Assembly: GCA_012267415.1 (NCBI GenBank)
Contig: JAAXGN010000115.1
Coordinates: 1 to 64,000, forward strand
Length of the DNA: 64,000 nucleotides
From: Candidatus Poribacteria bacterium
Lineage (GTDB): Bacteria; Poribacteria; WGA-4E; WGA-3G
Direction of reading: 5' to 3'
The notes under the pieces are model-generated. The model did not search any database and was not told the DNA's origin. It saw nothing but the letters and a program-made list of their open reading frames with translations. Each line of letters opens with the position of its first letter. Position 1 is the stretch's first letter. Position numbers and translations under genes: made by a program. Shown in pieces: positions 7,263 to 19,970 of this stretch.

Positions 7263-7679
7263 TTATCTTCCTTTCTATTGATATTCATTTGAATTGCCAC
7301 ATCAGCATACCAGATTATAGGTACAGTGTCAATCTATATATAAGGCGTGAGTAGAGTTTTTGTTGATACACAATGTCAGTTGTCAGGATCGCGTAAAGAA
7401 ACAGTTAGTTCCAATCAGCACATGTCGCCAGTTAATATTTTAATGGCACTTCGCTCTACCCGACCTACGAAGAAGACTTGACAAGGTAATAGAGATCAGA
7501 TATTTCTATTGGAAAAGAGTTGTTAAAATGGGATTTACATACGAAAAATTTACTTGACTATTTTGCAGATTTTATGTATATTTCATGCAGCATCCAAATG
7601 CGTTCTGAAAGTTCTTCTCGTTGAAGGGAATTGAAACCCGTTGGAGGAAGTCATCTGGAAAGCGAAAGGGATATATGAC

Positions 7680-8028
7680 ATGAAAAATCTTAAGGATGTA
7701 ATGTCCCCTGATGTACAGAAACAGTTGAAAATGTACAGAAAAGGTGTCCTGAGTATCCTGAAAGGATTGCGAAGCGGAGTTATGGACAATCAAGAAGCAG
7801 CACTAAGTCTAATTAGAATCCATGACGCTTTTGCATGGAAAATAGAAACATTGTGGTTACGGTGTCGCACACCCTTATTACATTTTTGCTTCCCGTGTTC
7901 TCCAATCAACAAAACTACTGATGGGAGAAGAATGGGTTGACTTACCACCTGTTTTGAACGGAATTGAACCGATTCATAGCAAACTCACATACCTACCTTT
8001 GCTCGTAATTCTCCACATATTTATATAA
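7680..8028 (+). pseudogene. Small hypothetical protein gene with apparent frameshift
   Basis: MKNLKDVMSPDVQKQLKMYRKGVLSILKGLRSGVMDNQEAALSLIRIHDAFAWKIETLW in one frame. Another frame continues with protein-like GVAHPYYIFASRVLQSTKLLMGEEWVDLPPVLNGIEPIHSKL up to the stop at 8028. Confidence 0.4.
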
Positions 8029-8138
8029 TAGTTGCCTTGTTTGCGTAATTTTGTTATACTTTTGAACCAGTTTTGGGTGGCACTGCCACGTATACTGCCT
8101 GATATATCTGCCATCCTTCCCACGTTAGCAGCGGATAA

Positions 8139-9074
8139 ATGAGCTGGGAACTGGTAAATCTAATGGAGAAACATGAAAAATTAAAACTCCTGTTGTTGGT
8201 CGCCGAAAATAAGGAAAATACAGAATTACGTATTTCATTTAATCAAATTATTAACACACTTCGTATTCCTATACCTTTTGGTGCTGATATGGAAAAAACT
8301 GTCTTTATTGCCAACGTTAGCGAAAATAATAAATTTGCCACTGAACTTCACAGTTTTTTAGAAAGACATGGTATAAAATGTTTCCAGTATACAATTGACC
8401 TCTTGCCGGGAGACAACATAAAACAGGAAACTAAAAAAAATATAGAAGAAAGTGATCACTGCATAATTTGTTTTTCAAAAGAATTCAACGCCCGCAAAAA
8501 ATCAGATATGCATAGAGAAATATATATAGCAATAGGGGATACTTATCAAAGAAAACCCAATAGTGGATACTTAATCCCAGTAAGAGTCAACGATTGCAAT
8601 ATAGAAGATTACGAGATTAATGCAACAACCTCAATGAAAGATCTCTGGTGTCCCGATTTTAGCAAAAACAGTGACAAAGCCCGTCAAGCCTTACTCAATA
8701 AGATACTCGGTCTAAGACCAGAATCTTCTGCTAAAATAAATGCTAACGCAATAACACCTCATCTGATCAGACTTCGTCAAGATGATAAATCATCCCTAAA
8801 GTTCCCTGGCTTCCTGTTAGGTGAATGTACAAACGCTCGTCAATGGAAAATACAAGTCTATGAAACAGCAGAGGATGTAAAAGAATGTAAGTATATTATT
8901 TATGTTGATCGTACAAACGCAAAAGTAGTTGCGGGTCAACAAAAGTATACAGTGAACAAATTTGATTCATTAGATTCCATAAAAACAAGTATATATAAAG
9001 TAACAGTGGATAAGGATTGTGCCAAGGATATATTGGACATGTTAGGTATTGAAGATTATGAATATTTAGAATAG
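8139..9074 (+). CDS. TIR-domain protein with uncharacterised N- and C-terminal extensions
   Basis: KTVFIANVSENNKFATELHSFLERHGIKCFQYTIDLLPGDNIKQETKKNIEESDHCIICFSKEFNARKKSDMHREIYIA has TIR-fold strand/helix order with a Glu in HREI at the expected catalytic position. Lies directly upstream of a type I R-M operon. Confidence 0.75.
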   Translation: MSWELVNLMEKHEKLKLLLLVAENKENTELRISFNQIINTLRIPIPFGADMEKTVFIANVSENNKFATELHSFLERHGIKCFQYTIDLLPGDNIKQETKKNIEESDHCIICFSKEFNARKKSDMHREIYIAIGDTYQRKPNSGYLIPVRVNDCNIEDYEINATTSMKDLWCPDFSKNSDKARQALLNKILGLRPESSAKINANAITPHLIRLRQDDKSSLKFPGFLLGECTNARQWKIQVYETAEDVKECKYIIYVDRTNAKVVAGQQKYTVNKFDSLDSIKTSIYKVTVDKDCAKDILDMLGIEDYEYLE

Positions 9075-9180
9075 AATATATTGAGTTCAAGTAAATTATG
9101 AAAGATTGGAAGGAATTTTCAGAGTAACGACTGTGATAGTTATCTGATAGCTTGTTGGTTTTTGCGGGTCTTTATATTCT

Positions 9181-9208
9181 GTAGGAGCGATTTCCGATTC
9201 GCGACCTA
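9181..9208. repeat. Solitary GTAG-footed palindrome (GTAGGAGCGAT family)
   Basis: gtaggagcgatttccgattcgcgaccta; near-identical modules at 41355-41383 and 63725-63750. Confidence 0.7.
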
Positions 9209-9253
9209 TTGTCGTTATACTATTACTAACACCACTTGAAAGGAACAACATAT

Positions 9254-12200
9254 ATGGCATTAAAGAAATCGCAACTCTATGCATCCTTATGGCAAAGCTG
9301 CGACGAACTCCGCGGCGGTATGGATGCCTCCCAATACAAAGACTACATCCTCACACTCCTGTTCATGAAATACGTATCCGATAAAGCAGCTAAGAACCCT
9401 GATGAAGGTATTGATGTCCCTGAAGGTGCAAGTTTCGCTGATATGGTTGCTTTGCGAAACGATAAAGAGATAGGGGAGAAAATAAACAAAATCATTGAGA
9501 AACTCACAGAAGCAAACGAACCACTTAAAGGAGTGATTGATGAGGTAGATTTCAATGACGATAACAAACTTGGCAGTGACGATGAAAAACAAGAAACTTT
9601 GTCAAACCTGATTGGTATTTTTAATGACCTTGACTTCAGCGGAAACAGAGTTGAGGGAGATGATCTGCTCGGTGATGCTTACGAGTACCTCATGCGTCAT
9701 TTTGCTACACAGTCTGGAAAAAGTAAAGGTCAGTTCTACACCCCCGCCGAAGTCTCTCGCGTCATAGCAAAAGTCATCGGTATCAATGCCAACACCACTG
9801 GAAAACATACCATCTACGACCCAACCTGTGGTTCAGGTTCACTTTTACTGAGAGCAGCAGACGTGGCACCGAATGGCTTATCCATATATGGACAGGAAAA
9901 AGACAATGCCACTTATGCACTAGCATGGATGAATATGATACTCCACGACAACGAGACTGCAATATTGAAGCGTGGCAACACACTTGCATCACCCGATTTC
10001 ACAGATGACCACGGTAACCTTACGAGATTCGACTTTGCTGTGGCAAATCCACCCTTTTCCGACAAGGGTTGGACCAGCGGTGTCAATCTTAAAAACGACC
10101 CATACAGTCGTTTTGATGGATACGACATCCCACCCGCCAAAAATGGTGATTATGCGTTCCTGCTGCACTTCATCGCATCGCTCAAAAATGCAGGTAAAGG
10201 GGCAATCATCCTTCCACACGGTGTGCTGTACCGTGGTAATAGAGAGGAGAACATCCGCAGAAAAATCATCAATCGCGGACATATCAAAGGTATCATTGGG
10301 TTACCTACCAACCTATTTTACGGTACTGGCATCCCCGCATGCATTATCGTCATTGACAAGGAAGATGCTAAACATCGCACTGGTATCTTTATGATTGACG
10401 CAAGCAAAGGATTTATGAAAGATGGCAACAAAAACCGACTTCGCGCCCAAGACATACACAAAATCGTTTCCGTTTTCAACAATCAGACCGAAATAGATGG
10501 CTATTCTCGTATGGTGCCAACCACTGAAATTACCAATACTGCAAACAACTATAACCTCAATATCCGACGTTATATTGACAACAGCGATCCTGAAATCACG
10601 CACGACGTTGACGCACACCTTAATGGTGGTATCCCTGATACTGATATTGACGCATTTAATCCCTATTGGGGAGTTTTCCCTACACTTCGGAAAGAGTTGT
10701 TTATAAGAAACGGAAGACCCGGCTATAGTGAACTGAAAGTGGAAACTCAACTGGTGAAAAACACTATCCTCTCACATTGTGAGTTTACCGCTTACCAACA
10801 ACGTGTAACAACAATTATTGACAAGTGGTGCAACAAACACAAACCCCATCTACTTGGTATTGATACAAACACCTTTCCTGGAAATATTATTCGGACACTA
10901 TCAGAAGACTTGCTGATAGAATTCGGAGATCTATCACCACTTGACAAATATGATGTGTATCAAGAACTGATGAATTATTGGGACGATGTAATGCAGGACG
11001 ATGTTTATTTAATCAGGAAACATGGTTGGGAATCTGGACGGACTATTAGAGAAGCTTATGTCAAGGAGGATCCAGATTTGAAAATTAAAATAGGACAAAA
11101 AACTATAAAGTATGTTGGAGAACTGATTCCTGCATCAATAATAATTGCCACGTTTTTTGATGATGAAAAACAAAAATTAGATGAACTCGAAGCAGAAATT
11201 GAGATGTTAACACAACATAAGGAGGCATTTGAAGAAGAACATGGAGATGGTGATGGTGCGCTCGTAGGACTTGAAGGAAGTAGGGGAAAAATAACAAAAG
11301 GTAATGTGCAAGAGCGCGTAATGGAACATAGGGAAGCCATATTGAAAAAGTACCCTAAAGAGACTCCTCAGCATATTCGAGCGAATAGTATCAAAAAGAC
11401 AACTTTTGATAATAGCCATTGGATTCAGAAGAACATTAGTTATCAAGATGGTCTATTCAAAAAACCAGAGATACCGTTTGAATATGACGAGGAAGGTTTA
11501 TTTGAGGAATTAGACGTTCTCTACGAATATCTACAATTACTAAAAGCTGAAAAGGAAAAAGTGGATGCACATAAACAAACACTAAAAAACTTATATACTT
11601 CAGTAATTGCCAAGTACGCAAAACTCACCGAAGGTGAAATAAAAAATCTTGTGGTTAAACACAAATGGTTTGGAAGTATTCAGTCCTCCATAGAATGTGC
11701 AACACAACGAATTACTCAACGTTTCACTGAACACGTGAATGAATTATACAAACGTTATGCACAAACCCTATCAGAACTGGAACGCCAAGTTGAAATGTGC
11801 TCCAACAAAGTTAAAAAACATCTGAAAAAGTTAACTATAATTGGACATAATGAAGTTACTATGGAGTCACTCCTTACAGGCAAGACTCGTCTACCGGGAT
11901 TCAGCAAAGAATGGGAAACAAAGCGGTTAGGAGATATAGCCTCGTTTTTTAAGGGTTCAAGTCTTTTCAAGAAAACGGATATGTCGCTTGATGGAAAATT
12001 GCGATGCATCCATTATGGAGAATTGTTCACAATCTATGGAGAATGTATTACAGAAGTTCTGCATGGAACTGATAGAGACAAAGCATTTTTCTGTTCTGTA
12101 AATAACGATGTCCTCATGCCAGCATCAGATGTCACACCTAATGGCCTTGCAACTGCAAGTTGTATATCTAAATCTGATATTATCCTTGGTGGTGACATTT

Positions 12201-12490
12201 TAGTTATTAGAGTTCCAGCAGAAATTCTCAATGGAATATTTCTTGCTTATACAATCAAAATCAATCGAAATCAAGTTATGCAGCTTGTTACGGGAACAAC
12301 GGTATATCACCTATATGGCCGTGATATGGCGAACTTTGAATTTGATCTACCAAGTATCCAAGAACAGAACGCAATCGTCCGTGTCCTCTCCGATATGGAT
12401 GCCGAAATCACTGCATTGGAACAGCGTAAACACAAAACCCTCGCCATCAAACAAGGGATGATGCAGCAGTTACTCACAGGCCGTGTCTGA
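9254..12490 (+). CDS. hsdM: Type I restriction-modification fusion protein: HsdM methyltransferase with C-terminal HsdS half-subunit
   Basis: HsdM: SQLYASLWQSCDELRGGMDASQYKDYILTLLFMKYVSD, YTPAEVSRVI, YDPTCGSGSLLL, FDFAVANPPFSDKGW. C-terminus is one HsdS TRD plus conserved coil: TRLPGFSKEWETKRLGDIASFFKG...IVRVLSDMDAEITALEQRKHKTLAIKQGMMQQLLTGRV. Start inferred at MALKKS. Confidence 0.9.
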   Translation: MALKKSQLYASLWQSCDELRGGMDASQYKDYILTLLFMKYVSDKAAKNPDEGIDVPEGASFADMVALRNDKEIGEKINKIIEKLTEANEPLKGVIDEVDFNDDNKLGSDDEKQETLSNLIGIFNDLDFSGNRVEGDDLLGDAYEYLMRHFATQSGKSKGQFYTPAEVSRVIAKVIGINANTTGKHTIYDPTCGSGSLLLRAADVAPNGLSIYGQEKDNATYALAWMNMILHDNETAILKRGNTLASPDFTDDHGNLTRFDFAVANPPFSDKGWTSGVNLKNDPYSRFDGYDIPPAKNGDYAFLLHFIASLKNAGKGAIILPHGVLYRGNREENIRRKIINRGHIKGIIGLPTNLFYGTGIPACIIVIDKEDAKHRTGIFMIDASKGFMKDGNKNRLRAQDIHKIVSVFNNQTEIDGYSRMVPTTEITNTANNYNLNIRRYIDNSDPEITHDVDAHLNGGIPDTDIDAFNPYWGVFPTLRKELFIRNGRPGYSELKVETQLVKNTILSHCEFTAYQQRVTTIIDKWCNKHKPHLLGIDTNTFPGNIIRTLSEDLLIEFGDLSPLDKYDVYQELMNYWDDVMQDDVYLIRKHGWESGRTIREAYVKEDPDLKIKIGQKTIKYVGELIPASIIIATFFDDEKQKLDELEAEIEMLTQHKEAFEEEHGDGDGALVGLEGSRGKITKGNVQERVMEHREAILKKYPKETPQHIRANSIKKTTFDNSHWIQKNISYQDGLFKKPEIPFEYDEEGLFEELDVLYEYLQLLKAEKEKVDAHKQTLKNLYTSVIAKYAKLTEGEIKNLVVKHKWFGSIQSSIECATQRITQRFTEHVNELYKRYAQTLSELERQVEMCSNKVKKHLKKLTIIGHNEVTMESLLTGKTRLPGFSKEWETKRLGDIASFFKGSSLFKKTDMSLDGKLRCIHYGELFTIYGECITEVLHGTDRDKAFFCSVNNDVLMPASDVTPNGLATASCISKSDIILGGDILVIRVPAEILNGIFLAYTIKINRNQVMQLVTGTTVYHLYGRDMANFEFDLPSIQEQNAIVRVLSDMDAEITALEQRKHKTLAIKQGMMQQLLTGRV

Positions 12491-12652
12491 TTATTGAAAT
12501 CAAATGATACACAATAAATAAAAAACGATCCTCAGTGGTCACAAATTGTAATTATAACAGAGACATTATAGGTTACCGAGACTCCACCCAATAGATAGAA
12601 GAGCTTTGTGATGCAAATACCAGTTCATACAAACTCTAAGGGAAGAGCAAAA

Positions 12653-15600
12653 ATGAATAATATCGGTGAAAAAGAAAGACGCATACAAGGACGACTCATC
12701 ACATTCTTTCAAGACGCTTTAGGGTACGAATACCTTGGCAACTGGCAATACCGTGCTAACAATCGTAACATCGAAAAGGATTTGCTGATCAAATGGCTGA
12801 GGACACAAGGGCATAATGAAAAAATAATCAAAAAAGTGTTGGATAAACTGAAAAGGGCAGCAGATGTTGGTGGAACAAAAACACTATACAACGCAAATCG
12901 TAAAATATATGGTTTATTACGATATGGAGCAAATGTGCGACCAGATACCGGACAGAAAAATACCACCGTCAAATTGATAGATTGGAAAAACCCTCATAAA
13001 AACCACTTCGGCATTGCGGAGGAGGTAACACTCCAATCTCAATACTCCAACAAACGTCCTGACCTTGTGTTATACATCAACGGTATAGCGATCAGTGTAA
13101 TAGAGTTGAAACGTTCCTCAGCGTCTGTCTCTAAAGGAATCCGTCAGAACATTGGAAACCAAAAAGTTGAGAACATTGGTCATTTCTTTAGCACCGTGCA
13201 ACTTATAATGGCAGGAAATGAATCGCAAGGTATACGTTACAGTGTCATAAATACAGAAGAGAAATACTGGCTGCAGTGGAAAGAAATAGATGCACATCCC
13301 GATGCAGGAAACAACCTATTGCACAGAGATGTCTGCCAACTTTGCAATAAAGAACGGATACTTGAACTCATTCATGACTTCATCGTTTTTGATGTGGAAA
13401 CAAAGAAAATATGCAGACATAATCAATACTTTAGTGTAAAGGCAGCGCAAGATAAAATCAAAAAACGTGAGGGTGGTATCATCTGGAATACACAAGGTAG
13501 TGGTAAAAGTCTCACTATGGTATGGTTAGCAAAATGGATACTTGAACACAACGCAGACGCGCGCGTGCTCATTATAACAGATCGCACGGAACTTGACGAT
13601 CAGATTGAAGGTGTTTTTCATGATGTCAAAGTGAAAATAAAACGGACGAAAAAAGGGTCGCATCTGTTACAAGTCCTCGGTAATTCCACAGTTAGACTCA
13701 TCTGTTCACTCGTTCATAAATTCCGATCTTCAAGTAATGACGACAAATCAGATATTGATGATTATGTGGAAGATATTGAGGCACAAAGGAAGGATAAATT
13801 TGATCCAAAAGGTGAAATTTATATTTTCGTGGACGAATGTCATCGCACACAGTCTGGCAAACTCCACAGAGCCATGACAACACTCCTTCCCGATGCTGTG
13901 CTTATCGCGTTTACAGGTACACCGTTATTTAAAACCCATAAACAACGGAGCATTGATATTTTCGGTCCGTTCATACACACTTATAAATATGACGAAGGCG
14001 TTCACGATAATATCGTTTTAGACCTGATTTATGAAGCGCGCAACATTGACATAGATATCACATCACAGGAGATGATTGACCATTTTTTTCAAGAGAGAAC
14101 GCAAGGATTATCCAACACAGCAAAGATGCAACTGAAACAGCGATGGGGAACTATAATGAATGTAGAAAGTTCAATAGACCGCTTGGAAAAGATAGTAGCG
14201 GATATTATGATAGATATGAACACGCGCCCGCGATTAATGAGTGGAAAAGGAAATGCAATGCTGGTCGCGAATAATATCTTTTCTGCCTGTCGATTTTATG
14301 ATCTGTTTCAGAATACGGGATTAAAAGGGAAATGTGCAGTCGTTTCTTCATATAAACCCGCAGCAGATAACGACAATAGACAGCAGGAATATAACACCTA
14401 CAGAAAAATGCTCGCTGCGTATTTCAATGAACCGGAAGACACAGCAATGCATAAGGTTGAAGCATTTGAAAATGCTGCCAAAAAGGATTTCGTTGAAAAG
14501 CCAGCCGAAATGAAACTTCTCATCGTTGTGGACAAATTACTTACAGGTTTTGATGCTCCATCTGCAACCTATCTTTATAATGATAAAAAGATGCAAGATC
14601 ACGGTCTCTTTCAAGCAATCTGTCGTGTCAATCGGCTTGATGGAGATGACAAGAAATTTGGATATATTGTTGATTACAAAGACCTATTTGGTTCTCGAAA
14701 AAAGGCAATGACAGAATACACAGGTGAAGCATTTGATAAATACGACATTAAAGATGTAAAAGGATTATTGAAGAATAGACTTGAAAAAGGAAAGGAACGA
14801 TTAGATAACGCCCGCGATCAGATTAAAGGATTGTGTGAACATGTTGATCCGCCCTATGATACCCCTGACTACATGCGCCATTTCTGTTGTGAGGAGATTG
14901 GCAACGATGAACAGATAAAGGCTAATGAACCGAGACGTTTAAAACTTTATAAACTTACAACGGCATTTATGCGTTCCTATGCCAACATTGCGAATGAAAT
15001 GGAAGATGCGAGTTATTCTGATACCGAAGTAGAAAATATAGAAAACGAAGTTTCGTACTACGAAGAAGTCTGCAAAATGATAAAATTGGCGAGCGGGGAC
15101 TATATTGACCTAAAAGTTTACGAACCCGATATGCGTCAACTGCTGGATACATATATCGGTGCTGCGGATACGGAAAAAATTACAACTTTTGACGATACAC
15201 CACTCGTTGAGTTACTTGTTGAAAACAGAGAAAAAGCAATCGATGCACTGCCCGAAAGCATTCGCAACAATGAAGAGGCAATTGCAGCAACTATTGCAAA
15301 CAATGTCCGAAGAGTAATCGTTGATAAGATAAATATAAATCCAAAATATTATAAGGAATTATCAATTCTGCTGGAGGAAGTGATTGACAAACGGAGAGAG
15401 GAGGTAATAGATTACAGAGATTTCCTATCTAAAGTACTTAAATTGGGGGAACAGGCAAATGATCCTGATACTTTTCGAGACTACCCATCAGATATTAACA
15501 CTCCACCTCTCAAAGCAATATATGACAACTTAGGTGATGCATCACCTGACATCAGGCGGGCAGGTGCAATCGCTCTGGACACCGCGATCCGAGGTGTCCT

Positions 15601-15742
15601 CACTGACAATTGGAAAGGTTACGTATTCAAAGAACGTCGTGTCAAAAGTGTAATTAAGAGAGTAATTCAGGAAGAATTGGACAATCTTGACCTTGAGATT
15701 GACGAAATTTTCGAACTTGTTAAGAGGCAAGATGAATACTAA
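12653..15742 (+). CDS. hsdR: Type I restriction enzyme R subunit
   Basis: PDLVLYINGIAISVIELKRSS (PD-ExK nuclease), GGIIWNTQGSGKSLTMVWLAKWI (Walker A), FVDECHRTQSG (DECH box), IAFTGTPLF, VVDKLLTGFDAPSATYLYNDK. Start inferred at MNNIGEKERR. Confidence 0.95.
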   Translation: MNNIGEKERRIQGRLITFFQDALGYEYLGNWQYRANNRNIEKDLLIKWLRTQGHNEKIIKKVLDKLKRAADVGGTKTLYNANRKIYGLLRYGANVRPDTGQKNTTVKLIDWKNPHKNHFGIAEEVTLQSQYSNKRPDLVLYINGIAISVIELKRSSASVSKGIRQNIGNQKVENIGHFFSTVQLIMAGNESQGIRYSVINTEEKYWLQWKEIDAHPDAGNNLLHRDVCQLCNKERILELIHDFIVFDVETKKICRHNQYFSVKAAQDKIKKREGGIIWNTQGSGKSLTMVWLAKWILEHNADARVLIITDRTELDDQIEGVFHDVKVKIKRTKKGSHLLQVLGNSTVRLICSLVHKFRSSSNDDKSDIDDYVEDIEAQRKDKFDPKGEIYIFVDECHRTQSGKLHRAMTTLLPDAVLIAFTGTPLFKTHKQRSIDIFGPFIHTYKYDEGVHDNIVLDLIYEARNIDIDITSQEMIDHFFQERTQGLSNTAKMQLKQRWGTIMNVESSIDRLEKIVADIMIDMNTRPRLMSGKGNAMLVANNIFSACRFYDLFQNTGLKGKCAVVSSYKPAADNDNRQQEYNTYRKMLAAYFNEPEDTAMHKVEAFENAAKKDFVEKPAEMKLLIVVDKLLTGFDAPSATYLYNDKKMQDHGLFQAICRVNRLDGDDKKFGYIVDYKDLFGSRKKAMTEYTGEAFDKYDIKDVKGLLKNRLEKGKERLDNARDQIKGLCEHVDPPYDTPDYMRHFCCEEIGNDEQIKANEPRRLKLYKLTTAFMRSYANIANEMEDASYSDTEVENIENEVSYYEEVCKMIKLASGDYIDLKVYEPDMRQLLDTYIGAADTEKITTFDDTPLVELLVENREKAIDALPESIRNNEEAIAATIANNVRRVIVDKININPKYYKELSILLEEVIDKRREEVIDYRDFLSKVLKLGEQANDPDTFRDYPSDINTPPLKAIYDNLGDASPDIRRAGAIALDTAIRGVLTDNWKGYVFKERRVKSVIKRVIQEELDNLDLEIDEIFELVKRQDEY

Positions 15743-16466
15743 ATCAAATGTTTACAACATTGAAGTACGTGATCTCTCCATAGAAGTAGTCCGAAAAGAC
15801 ATCAAGCATTTCTACATCGGTGTTCATCCACCAAACGGACAGGTACGCGTATCTGCACCGCTGCGACTTGACGATGATGCTGTGCGGATGGCTATTATTT
15901 CACGTTTAGGATGGATTAAACGGAGACAAGCATCATTTGCCAAACAGCAACGCCAATCACAACGTGAATATGTGTCTGGTGAAAGCCACTATTTTGCGGG
16001 AAAACGTTACAGACTAAAAGTCAATGAACAGGATTGCCCACCTAATGTTAAACTACTGAACAACACCAGAATTGGACTGACCGTGCGTCCGGGGACAGAT
16101 CGGGATAAACGTGAGGCGGTATTCTATGAGTGGTATCGCGAACATCTCCAATCACAACTGCCGCCACTTCTTGAAAAATGGGAACCGAAACTGGGGGTGT
16201 CTGTCAACGAGGTACGTATCAAGAGAATGAAAACACTCTGGGGTTCCTGTAATATTGAGGCAAAACGTATCTGGCTCAATCTTGAACTAGCAAAGAAACC
16301 ACAATCCTGTTTGATATATGTATTGGTTCACGAGATGACACATCTACTTGAACGGCATCACAATGATCATTTTCGAGAGTTGATGGACACTTTTTTACCG
16401 AAGTGGCGTTCCTACCAAGATGAACTGAACAGAGCACCGTTAGCACACGAAAACTGGCGTTATTGA
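15732..16466 (+). CDS. YgjP-like (M48/DUF45) zinc metallopeptidase
   Basis: YVLVHEMTHLLERHHNDHFRELMDTFLPKWRSYQDELN (HExxH...H); RIKRMKTLWGSCN. Overlaps the hsdR stop; commonly linked to type I R-M. Confidence 0.9.
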   Translation: MNTKSNVYNIEVRDLSIEVVRKDIKHFYIGVHPPNGQVRVSAPLRLDDDAVRMAIISRLGWIKRRQASFAKQQRQSQREYVSGESHYFAGKRYRLKVNEQDCPPNVKLLNNTRIGLTVRPGTDRDKREAVFYEWYREHLQSQLPPLLEKWEPKLGVSVNEVRIKRMKTLWGSCNIEAKRIWLNLELAKKPQSCLIYVLVHEMTHLLERHHNDHFRELMDTFLPKWRSYQDELNRAPLAHENWRY

Positions 16467-16471
16467 ACCTT

Positions 16472-16500
16472 GTAGTTGCTCACCAGCGACTATTTTTTTT
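16472..16500 (+). terminator. Rho-independent terminator after the R-M operon
   Basis: gtagttgct cacc agcgactat followed by a run of eight T. Confidence 0.65.
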
Positions 16501-16774
16501 ACATCTGTCCTTGTCCAGTAAGTTCAAGCGGAATATACTCTTGATATTGATTGTAATTGGAATGAACAACCGTACTGCCAACGGAGGCTATGCTACATAG
16601 CGCAAGCGTCCAGCAAAGCACAAAAACACCGACACACCGACCACTCTTTTGCTTTTTTTATTTTGACATTTTACATCTGATAGTTTATACTTGATGTATA
16701 CACACTCTGTTACGAATCTTCAGAAATGTCAGCAGGATATACTATGGTGTCCACCCTCATAGGAATAATTAATC

Positions 16775-17710
16775 ATGTCGAATGATAATCAAGATGAAAA
16801 GCAGCCTTTAGCATACTTTTTCGCGAAGAGCAATTTCGGGGATAATCAACCAGATTTTATTAAAATTGGTCACACTATCACGGATATTTCAAAACCTCAA
16901 ACCAATCTAAAACGACTAAAGACCTTACAAACAGGAAATGAAGCCAAAATATGGGACATAGGAGTTATTCCTTTTGATACACCGGATGACGCTTCCAGAG
17001 AAGAAAAGCGACTGCAATCTCAGTTTGGAGCATTTCGAGCTGAAGGAGAATGGTTTATTGCGACGCCCCGAATATTAAAGTTTATCAAGAATTATGCAGT
17101 ACAGCATACCGATCTATTTACTGAGGAAGAACCAACAGAAATAGAAAAACCGACAGAAACAGAAGAACCAACAAAAACAGAAGAAACTAAAGAAATGTCA
17201 TTTGGTGATAGACTTGCTGAAGCAAGGAAATCGGCAGGTATGTCCAGTCAAAAGGATTTGGCAGAAAAAGTTGGTTACTCTCGTTCACACATTGCTCTCA
17301 TTGAACAAGACAGAGGTAAACCCGGAAAAAGTCTATATAAAAAATTAGTTGAGTTATTCGGTGATTCTTTAGAACCTCCCACTGAAACAATATCTGGAAA
17401 TATTCTAGCCGTTAAAATGGAAGATGGAAGTTGGATTTCAGAATATAAAGAGATAGACACATTTATTGAGGTGATTAAGACAATAGGTATCGAAAGGGTA
17501 AAAGAACTCAATAAAAAAGAAGCAGGTATACCTTTGATAGCGGATAAACAGTATCCTGATAAACGACAAAAAAAGGTAGAAACAGAGACAGGAACATATT
17601 ACATATTTGCAGGTCTCGCTAATGTAAGAAAGAAGAAAATTTTGGATAACATCGCAGTTCGTCTAAAGCGTGATATAAAAGTCTTTATCAATCAAGTCAA
17701 GAGCATATAG
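16775..17710 (+). CDS. T5orf172/GIY-YIG-like domain fused to an XRE-type HTH domain
   Basis: FIKIGHTITDISKPQTNLKRLKTLQTGNEAKIWDIGVIPFDTPDDASREEKRLQSQFGAFRAEGEWFIAT resembles T5orf172/MUG113; EPTEIEKPTETEEPTKTEE linker; then FGDRLAEARKSAGMSSQKDLAEKVGYSRSHIALIEQDRGKPGKSLYKKLVELFG (HTH_3). Confidence 0.75.
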   Translation: MSNDNQDEKQPLAYFFAKSNFGDNQPDFIKIGHTITDISKPQTNLKRLKTLQTGNEAKIWDIGVIPFDTPDDASREEKRLQSQFGAFRAEGEWFIATPRILKFIKNYAVQHTDLFTEEEPTEIEKPTETEEPTKTEETKEMSFGDRLAEARKSAGMSSQKDLAEKVGYSRSHIALIEQDRGKPGKSLYKKLVELFGDSLEPPTETISGNILAVKMEDGSWISEYKEIDTFIEVIKTIGIERVKELNKKEAGIPLIADKQYPDKRQKKVETETGTYYIFAGLANVRKKKILDNIAVRLKRDIKVFINQVKSI

Positions 17711-18038
17711 TCATGTCACTTACCCCATTTTTATTTTGTTCTGTTCTATTGCAATGTTTCTCTGCTTTTCAAAACGAAGTCTTTGAAGTTAAAACACGAC
17801 TTGATGTTTCTGAACCTATGTTCAATCTGCATCCCACGTTCCTTCCGGTAAATCGGTCTCACCTATCAAAACGAGTGCTTGTTTCTTTGCACGTTTTGAA
17901 CGCCACAGATGCTGTGCCATATAAGCCAACTATGCTTGCATCACATCTTGATATGGAAAAGGTGTGTCAAGGAAACGCAGCAGCCGTTTTTGTTTAGATT
18001 TTTCTTTCTGAACATCTATCGGTAAACGATAAGCGGCG

Positions 18039-19970
18039 TTAAATCCAGCTATAAACAGCGGAACGGAATATTAGACTCAGCAGAGGCCAAAAACAACCCA
18101 TCAGTGCCTCACCTAATACCAGCCCGATGAAAAAGGGAATTGCTTTACGATATGCGTTTATACCCCCATTTCGCAGTATAATCCACTTTGTCACCATCGC
18201 GATTAACAATGGAAACCAAATTACATCCGTAGTGCCAGGTGCTACACCGATAACATAGCCAGCCGGATGTAGTGGACACCAGACGAAGCGAGAACGTAAC
18301 ATCATGATACCCAAATTCGCAACAAAAGTACCGCCCAACACAGTAGTAGCAATCCAGTCCATCGGTTTGGGGTTTACCAACCAAGATGAAAGAAAATTAT
18401 ACGTATCCGCACCACCTGCATGAATCTGTTCTGAACCTGCTGCAACACCTTCCCGGTATATTGCATAAGGGTAGAGTATCAGACTTGACAATATGCCAAT
18501 AAGGCTTGCGATGATTAGAACTGTGAACATTGTTCTATTTCGGATATTCGTTCTCTCCGCAAGTTTGAATGCTTCCAATTGGTCCGGCATAGGATGTGTG
18601 CGGAATGATGCATAACTGGCTCCGCTAAGCCAATTCAACAGCGATAGCATTGTTAGATTTCCTGCCCGAAGTCTTCGCGTGCCGAGAAGCGAAATCATCA
18701 TGTATTGCGGTGTAAGATAACCGATAGCATGGATTGGCGGACCGAGTTCCGCACGCATCCGAGTTAAACCGACAACAATCAATAAGTATATACCGATAAA
18801 AACAAAAAATGCCCATAAAGACATACCGCCACGTATGCAGAGTATAGCAAGCAAAAATAGTGATACTCCCAGTGTAATCAATGTGCTGCGATATGAAATA
18901 CCTTCATTCTGCGTTCCTGAACGCGTCGGACGAATTGACTGAGAAAAAACGAAGGCAAAGTGTTTACGACCATGCCAACATGCAATAGCAAGTAACGCAA
19001 GTAACGCACCCGCTCCCTGTTCACCTAAAAACGGATAACCCGCAACCTTAGACATACCTGATGCACTGCCAAAAACCAACTGCACCTTCTTCATCAGATA
19101 GAAAAACGTACATGAAAACGCTAAATCCAACGGGAGGATAAATGAGAAACCTATAAGGTAAGGATGGAACCTCAGTGGTGTATTGCCTATCGCATTCCAA
19201 GGCTTTTGTGTAAAATAGATATTGAGATTATATTCTCTAACGGGAATAGTCGGCAAGACAGGAAAAAAATACTGTAATCCATTCAGTAGATTTATCCCCA
19301 TGGCTATGCCAAAACCTATCCAAAGTAGTCGACTCTTGAAAATGCGACGATTCGAGACGACCTCAAGCGGAATCTGGATAATTGGATAAGCGAGTTTTTC
19401 ATTTTCTATCCACTGTTTGCGAATGAGCGATGTCAAACAGAGGAATATCAGCATCAACAGGAAGATCACGGCAGACCAAGAAAGAATCGGAACTATCCAA
19501 AACTGTAAATACCCGCCTGTAAAAAAGTTCGTGTTTCCTTCATAGAAATCATTAACTGTTCTCGGATCCTTGACAACAAGCCAGTCCGGCAGATGGTGAA
19601 AAAGGAGTGCTTCCCAATCATTTTCCGCTGTAGCAAAGCGATAAGCATACGGTATAAGTCCCATGAGCCGAGGTATACAGTCATGTCCAGAAAAGGCACT
19701 CCCTACCGCAAGCATACTATAGACAACAACCAGATCACGTTTTGTCAGTGCAGCAAACGGAGCAAAACTTCTTATCCACAAATTCAGAACCGTTATAACA
19801 AAAATGCCAAACATGACATTTACTGACATCGCTACTGTCGTTAGATGCGCTGTGTGCCAGATCATCTCAATATAAGCAATCCAGTAACTGTTGGCAATGA
19901 TAAGAATAATACCAATAAATACAGCGCGTTTTGTTATAGACTGTGAAGTCTTCAGGTCTGTTTGATTCAT
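18039..19970 (-). CDS. Multi-pass integral membrane protein (DUF6785/DUF6784-like)
   Basis: 643 aa with about 12 or more hydrophobic segments; family assignment from general resemblance only. Confidence 0.6.
   Translation of the reverse strand: MNQTDLKTSQSITKRAVFIGIILIIANSYWIAYIEMIWHTAHLTTVAMSVNVMFGIFVITVLNLWIRSFAPFAALTKRDLVVVYSMLAVGSAFSGHDCIPRLMGLIPYAYRFATAENDWEALLFHHLPDWLVVKDPRTVNDFYEGNTNFFTGGYLQFWIVPILSWSAVIFLLMLIFLCLTSLIRKQWIENEKLAYPIIQIPLEVVSNRRIFKSRLLWIGFGIAMGINLLNGLQYFFPVLPTIPVREYNLNIYFTQKPWNAIGNTPLRFHPYLIGFSFILPLDLAFSCTFFYLMKKVQLVFGSASGMSKVAGYPFLGEQGAGALLALLAIACWHGRKHFAFVFSQSIRPTRSGTQNEGISYRSTLITLGVSLFLLAILCIRGGMSLWAFFVFIGIYLLIVVGLTRMRAELGPPIHAIGYLTPQYMMISLLGTRRLRAGNLTMLSLLNWLSGASYASFRTHPMPDQLEAFKLAERTNIRNRTMFTVLIIASLIGILSSLILYPYAIYREGVAAGSEQIHAGGADTYNFLSSWLVNPKPMDWIATTVLGGTFVANLGIMMLRSRFVWCPLHPAGYVIGVAPGTTDVIWFPLLIAMVTKWIILRNGGINAYRKAIPFFIGLVLGEALMGCFWPLLSLIFRSAVYSWI

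What the first reader, a model, noticed from the sequence alone, without database searches (positions are those of the whole stretch)
8139..9074. TIR-domain protein with unassigned flanking domains beside a type I R-M operon
A TIR domain with a candidate catalytic Glu (RKKSDMHREI) is followed by about 90 aa (FLLGECTNARQWKIQVYETAEDVKECKYIIYVDRTNAKVVAGQQKYTVNKFDSL...) that I cannot assign and that could be a sensor domain, plus a short helical N-terminal extension. Bacterial TIR proteins are frequently NADase effectors in anti-phage systems. No ThsA-like, STAND or Argonaute partner is adjacent, so it would be a stand-alone effector or partner of the R-M system.
Basis: partly seen in the sequence, partly recalled or inferred. 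Interest (0 to 1): 0.7.

Follow-up and report, generated by a model that had tools for sequence, protein, structure and literature searches.

The report
TIR effector inside restriction island
A bacterium from the phylum Poribacteria carries, next to a DNA-restriction system on a recently acquired gene island, a probable NAD-destroying immune protein (TIR domain) with a small extra domain that is in no family library searched here and that also occurs on a different kind of immune effector in another restriction operon.

Summary
The C-terminal ~105 aa is a separate domain with no match in Pfam, NCBIfam, PADLOC or PDB. It recurs only twice in the collections searched: fused to a bSEFIR effector that also sits between hsdM and hsdS of another type I R-M operon, and as a stand-alone 138-aa protein. 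The genome is Candidatus Poribacteria. The TIR gene lies on a 10.7-kb island (7346-18038) inserted between ilvE and a DUF6785-like gene; close relatives have the empty site. The island holds hsdM-half-hsdS (fused), hsdR, a YgjP/SprT-type gene and an HTH gene. In relatives, the space between hsdS and hsdR carries variable defence genes. Five of 35 such loci have a TIR gene within about 5 kb (about 0.4 expected), though of another TIR subfamily. Best reading: a restriction-linked, abortive-infection TIR NADase with a new accessory domain. NADase activity, trigger and coupling to restriction are untested. New variant of a known kind; interest moderate.

The parts
8139..9074 (+). TIR protein, 311 aa (N-extension, TIR, C-terminal domain)
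8139..8288 (+). N-terminal extension (residues 1-50), weakly predicted helical; alternative starts ATG 8163 and ATG 8289
8301..8693 (+). TIR domain (Pfam TIR_2)
8517..8519 (+). codon of Glu127, aligned with catalytic E77 of SPARTA TIR
8760..9071 (+). C-terminal accessory domain (predicted four strands then two helices, low confidence), shared with a bSEFIR effector and a stand-alone protein
9251..12490 (+). natural HsdM fused to the C-terminal half of HsdS (one TRD)
12653..15742 (+). HsdR, type I restriction subunit
15732..16466 (+). YgjP/SprT-like metallopeptidase, directly downstream of hsdR in relatives
16775..17710 (+). MUG113 (N-terminal) plus HTH protein, possible island regulator
7346..18038 (.). 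10.7-kb island inserted between ilvE and the DUF6785-like gene; site empty in G012

Best explanation
A restriction-linked TIR effector. The protein is most likely an infection-triggered NAD+ hydrolase, held inactive until the C-terminal domain (alone or with a partner) promotes TIR-TIR assembly. It then depletes NAD+ and stops the infected cell, as a second line behind the type I R-M enzyme on the same island. Shown: TIR domain, conserved Glu, separate C-terminal domain shared with a bSEFIR effector, island insertion, recurrent defence genes in cognate R-M loci. Inferred: NADase chemistry, activation by the C-terminal domain, abortive infection. Unknown: the trigger, and whether R-M proteins take part.
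For: TIR_2 E=3.6e-18. Glu127 invariant and aligned with SPARTA E77. Structural hits to TIR-STING and SPARTA. The C-terminal domain is a movable module: 32% identical over 111 aa to the C-terminus of a protein whose first 161 residues match PADLOC bSEFIR (E=9.5e-66), a defence effector family. That protein lies between hsdM and hsdS of another type I R-M operon. The island is absent from close relatives. hsdS-hsdR gaps in relatives carry ThsB_TIR, AAA_21, HEPN_AbiU2, DUF4062 and DUF1828 genes. 5 of 35 related HsdR loci have a TIR gene within 5.3 kb, against about 0.41 expected.
Against: No activity data. The cognate R-M loci carry a different TIR subfamily (ThsB_TIR), four of the five between hsdS and hsdR, not upstream of hsdM. 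No other genome searched carries this TIR plus C-terminal-domain protein. The third C-terminal-domain protein (L036) is not beside an R-M system. Several of the 35 loci are related, so the enrichment is overstated. Co-transcription with hsdM (176-bp gap) was not shown.
Confidence: 0.55

Rival explanations
1. Guard of the restriction enzyme: the C-terminal domain binds HsdM/HsdR, or senses their inhibition (for example by a phage anti-restriction protein), and then releases TIR activity, much as PrrC guards EcoprrI (PrrC from general knowledge).
For: Both effectors that carry the domain (TIR here, bSEFIR in L024) are embedded in type I R-M loci although their effector domains differ.
Against: Only two cases; the two HsdM proteins are only distantly similar (E=3.8e-28); the third copy of the domain has no R-M gene in the stretch around it whose ORFs were read.
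Confidence: 0.15
2. Signal-producing TIR (Thoeris ThsB-like) that makes an NAD-derived messenger for an effector elsewhere in the genome.
For: TIR domains of this superfamily can make messengers (Ofir et al. 2021, title cited in PMC11559045); Poribacteria hold many ThsB_TIR genes.
Against: No ThsA-like gene on the island; this TIR fits TIR_2, not ThsB_TIR; closest solved relatives by sequence are SPARTA-type TIRs. The rest of the genome was not searched for ThsA.
Confidence: 0.15
3. A passenger gene with no tie to R-M: a TIR protein of another role (protein-protein signalling) that sits on the island by shared mobility alone.
For: TIR genes are common in this phylum, about 3 TIR_2 matches per genome, several joined to TPR-like repeats; the TIR gene is outside the usual cargo slot.
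Against: The conserved Glu, and the presence of the C-terminal domain in two R-M loci.
Confidence: 0.15

Closest known systems
SPARTA TIR-APAZ (short prokaryotic Argonaute system)
   Same: Closest solved TIRs by profile (E=7e-11); catalytic Glu aligned
   Different: No APAZ domain detected and no Argonaute gene on the island
bSEFIR defence effector
   Same: A relative, L024, joins a bSEFIR domain to the same C-terminal domain; N-terminal effector domain plus variable C-terminus
   Different: Here the effector domain is TIR, not SEFIR; the PADLOC bSEFIR model does not hit this protein
Thoeris (ThsB TIR)
   Same: TIR effector; ThsB_TIR genes occur as cargo of cognate R-M operons
   Different: Different TIR family, extra C-terminal domain, no ThsA on the island
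Genes embedded in type I R-M operons (PrrC-EcoprrI, Rlo genes; from general knowledge)
   Same: An extra defence gene linked to hsd genes
   Different: PrrC and RloC are anticodon nucleases; this is a TIR protein upstream of hsdM

Membership tests
TIR domain proteins | significant TIR profile match | tested here: met
   TIR_2 E=3.6e-18, 66.6 bits against a cut-off of 28
TIR domain proteins | TIR (flavodoxin-like) fold | tested here: met
   3-sequence AlphaFold model, TIR part pLDDT 56-83; Foldseek E down to 6e-6 to TIR structures
TIR NADases | catalytic Glu at the SARM1/SPARTA position | tested here: met
   Glu127 aligned with E77 of SPARTA
TIR NADases | NAD+ hydrolysis | not testable with these tools
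   needs an assay
Thoeris | ThsA effector gene in the operon | tested here: not met
   no such gene among the island ORFs scanned
Thoeris | TIR of the ThsB family | tested here: not met
   TIR_2, TIR and CAP12-PCTIR_TIR matched; ThsB_TIR not reported at E<=1
SPARTA | APAZ domain fused to TIR | tested here: not met
   PADLOC Aga_TIR models match only the TIR part; C-terminus unmatched
SPARTA | short Argonaute in the operon | tested here: not met
   island ORFs are HsdMS, HsdR, YgjP/SprT and HTH
bSEFIR | SEFIR domain | tested here: not met
   no SEFIR or bSEFIR match for P0001
Type I R-M (neighbouring genes) | HsdM, HsdS and HsdR subunits | tested here: met
   N6_Mtase, one Methylase_S domain, HSDR_N and SWI2_SNF2; HsdS is only half and fused to HsdM

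The most novel reading that the evidence does not exclude
The C-terminal domain is a new trigger module that couples TIR or SEFIR effectors to type I restriction enzymes, so that attack on or failure of restriction releases NAD+ depletion: a restriction-guarding NADase system with exchangeable effector domains.
Probability: 0.12. Interest if true: 0.8.

Novelty: new variant of a known kind. Interest (0 to 1): 0.42.

Why it matters
It links TIR/SEFIR NADase-type effectors to type I restriction loci through a small domain that no family library used here names. It suggests a testable idea, that restriction operons carry a backup effector which fires when restriction fails. It also places such a TIR protein in Poribacteria, an uncultured phylum of sponge-associated bacteria (habitat from general knowledge).

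Tried and rejected
EXLDI (TIGR04342) was suspected for the C-terminal domain from its closing motif. Scans of the domain gave no EXLDI match, and no Poribacteria genome scored above that family's cut-off. The weak NCBIfam hit to peptide arginase (E=0.01-0.065) is far below its cut-off and was ignored. The domain alone was folded from 2 sequences (pLDDT 58, pTM 0.53) and Foldseek gave only chance matches (E>=1.6). Searches of phages, plasmids and IMG/VR for the domain found nothing. The genome contigs pattern scan found only the known Poribacteria relative. Phyla outside Poribacteria could not be searched with the profile, so 'only two relatives' is a statement about the collections and sensitivity used. 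No terminal repeats flank the island, and promoter and terminator scans are at chance level.

Full report
Observation. The ORF 8139-9074 (+) encodes 311 aa. Residues 55-185 match Pfam TIR_2 at E=3.6e-18. The model built from three sequences has the alternating strand/helix TIR core at pLDDT 56-83, and its best Foldseek hits are TIR-STING, SPARTA TIR-APAZ and PdTIR. It is invariant among seven Poribacteria TIRs and falls on position 77 of SPARTA TIR in the profile alignment. E77A is used as the catalytic mutant of the TIR-APAZ/Ago system (PMC10474274). Three features are untested or atypical: NAD+ hydrolysis itself; the usual FISY motif, which here reads FIAN; and the start codon. Codon usage supports the 50-residue extension as coding, but it has no relatives among the fetched loci, and alternative ATGs lie at 8163 and 8289.

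The C-terminal domain. Residues from about 207 to 311 match nothing in Pfam, NCBIfam, PADLOC or PDB, and only weakly (E>=0.03) in PHROGs. A six-frame search of 85 Poribacteria genomes found one relative at E=4.5e-13, and a profile added a second at E=8.5e-6. The first (L023 and L024 are the same gene) is a 273-aa protein whose residues 1-161 match PADLOC bSEFIR at E=9.5e-66, followed by the same domain at 32% identity. It lies between hsdM (L024:3160-4998) and hsdS (L024:11792-13039) of a different type I R-M operon, beside an AAA ATPase and small-protein pair matching PADLOC HEC-03B and HEC-03A; the hsdS there was recognised from its sequence by eye, not by a profile. The second is a stand-alone 138-aa protein (L036:1339-1755) with no R-M gene seen nearby. 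The domain is therefore a real, movable module. bSEFIR-like proteins on plasmids elsewhere match only over the SEFIR part and carry other C-termini, which fits a modular effector with exchangeable partners. The fold of the domain is predicted only weakly, as four strands then two helices, without structural relatives.

The island. The organism is a Candidatus Poribacteria: the bSEFIR relative's record names the phylum, and the genome search places the window's genome in the same family as that relative. In G012 the neighbouring DNA is 94-96% identical and ilvE abuts the DUF6785-like gene. In the window 10,693 bp (7346-18038) sit at that junction. G001, G002 and G014 also have the empty junction, while G015 and G009 carry other inserts there, so the site is a hotspot. 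The insert holds the TIR gene, the HsdM-half-HsdS fusion, HsdR, a YgjP/SprT-like peptidase and an HTH/MUG113 protein. No integrase was recognised among the ORFs examined and no terminal repeat was found.

The restriction system in relatives. The order hsdM, hsdS, variable genes, hsdR, YgjP/SprT is kept in most fetched relatives that show the whole operon. The gap between hsdS and hsdR is 1.8 to 6.2 kb in most and absent or nearly so in two. Its genes include HATPase_c_4/DUF4062 proteins, DUF1828, AAA_21/AAA_15, HEPN_AbiU2 and four ThsB_TIR proteins. Among 35 other loci with a close HsdR relative, five have a TIR gene within 5.3 kb (G009, G026, G063, G079, G082). The phylum-wide TIR density predicts about 0.41 (the matches were counted by hand from the two tables). 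These loci are not independent, and defence genes cluster in general, so this supports a defence neighbourhood rather than a functional bond. The window departs from the pattern: its half-hsdS and hsdR are adjacent, and its TIR gene is upstream of hsdM and of another TIR subfamily.

Mechanism. Established elsewhere: the TIR-APAZ/Ago NADase is activated through TIR assembly, and TIR and SEFIR systems are counted among NAD+-depleting defences (PMC10474274; PMC11559045). Inferred here: the protein is such an effector, the C-terminal domain controls or triggers assembly, and the R-M enzyme is the first line of defence. A guard mechanism coupling the domain to restriction is attractive because both effectors with the domain lie in R-M loci, but it rests on two cases.

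Verdict. TIR fold, catalytic-type Glu, unassigned domain and defence setting are confirmed. A link to HsdMS fusions is not. This is a new variant of a known kind (TIR effector) with a small unnamed domain shared across two effector types.

Noticed in passing
window 9251-12490: Natural fusion of a whole HsdM to only the C-terminal half of HsdS (one TRD; 77% identical to residues 211-421 of the G035 HsdS), with hsdR retained. It resembles the engineered, active M-half-S fusion of PMC6158711, which dimerises and recognises a palindromic site; that one kept the N-terminal half of HsdS, this one the C-terminal half.
   Followed up: partly
window 7345-18039: The ilvE / DUF6785-like junction is an insertion hotspot in this genus: empty in G001, G002, G012 and G014, an 11-kb insert with WD40-repeat and ATPase genes in G015, a 3.4-kb insert in G009.
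   Followed up: partly
L080:10114-11051, L081:3843-4771: A ThsB_TIR protein paired with a small, apparently membrane-type protein between hsdS and hsdR, with no ThsA recognised in the gap; possibly a Thoeris-like variant linked to R-M.
   Followed up: partly
L094:10794-11618 and L087:8669-9289: ThsB_TIR proteins with an N-terminal extension; L094 also has a Fic-like_C C-terminus.
   Followed up: no
L024:7498-9359 and 10580-11542: AAA ATPase plus small protein (PADLOC HEC-03B/HEC-03A) and an unassigned 320-aa protein in the same locus as the bSEFIR gene with the C-terminal domain.
   Followed up: no
window 16775-17710: MUG113 domain (PF13455) plus HTH protein at the island's end, with an 18-nt imperfect tandem repeat in its linker; no relative among the fetched loci.
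   Followed up: partly
window 7641-7940: 99-aa ORF at the island's left end with no relatives found; may be a remnant or not a gene.
   Followed up: partly
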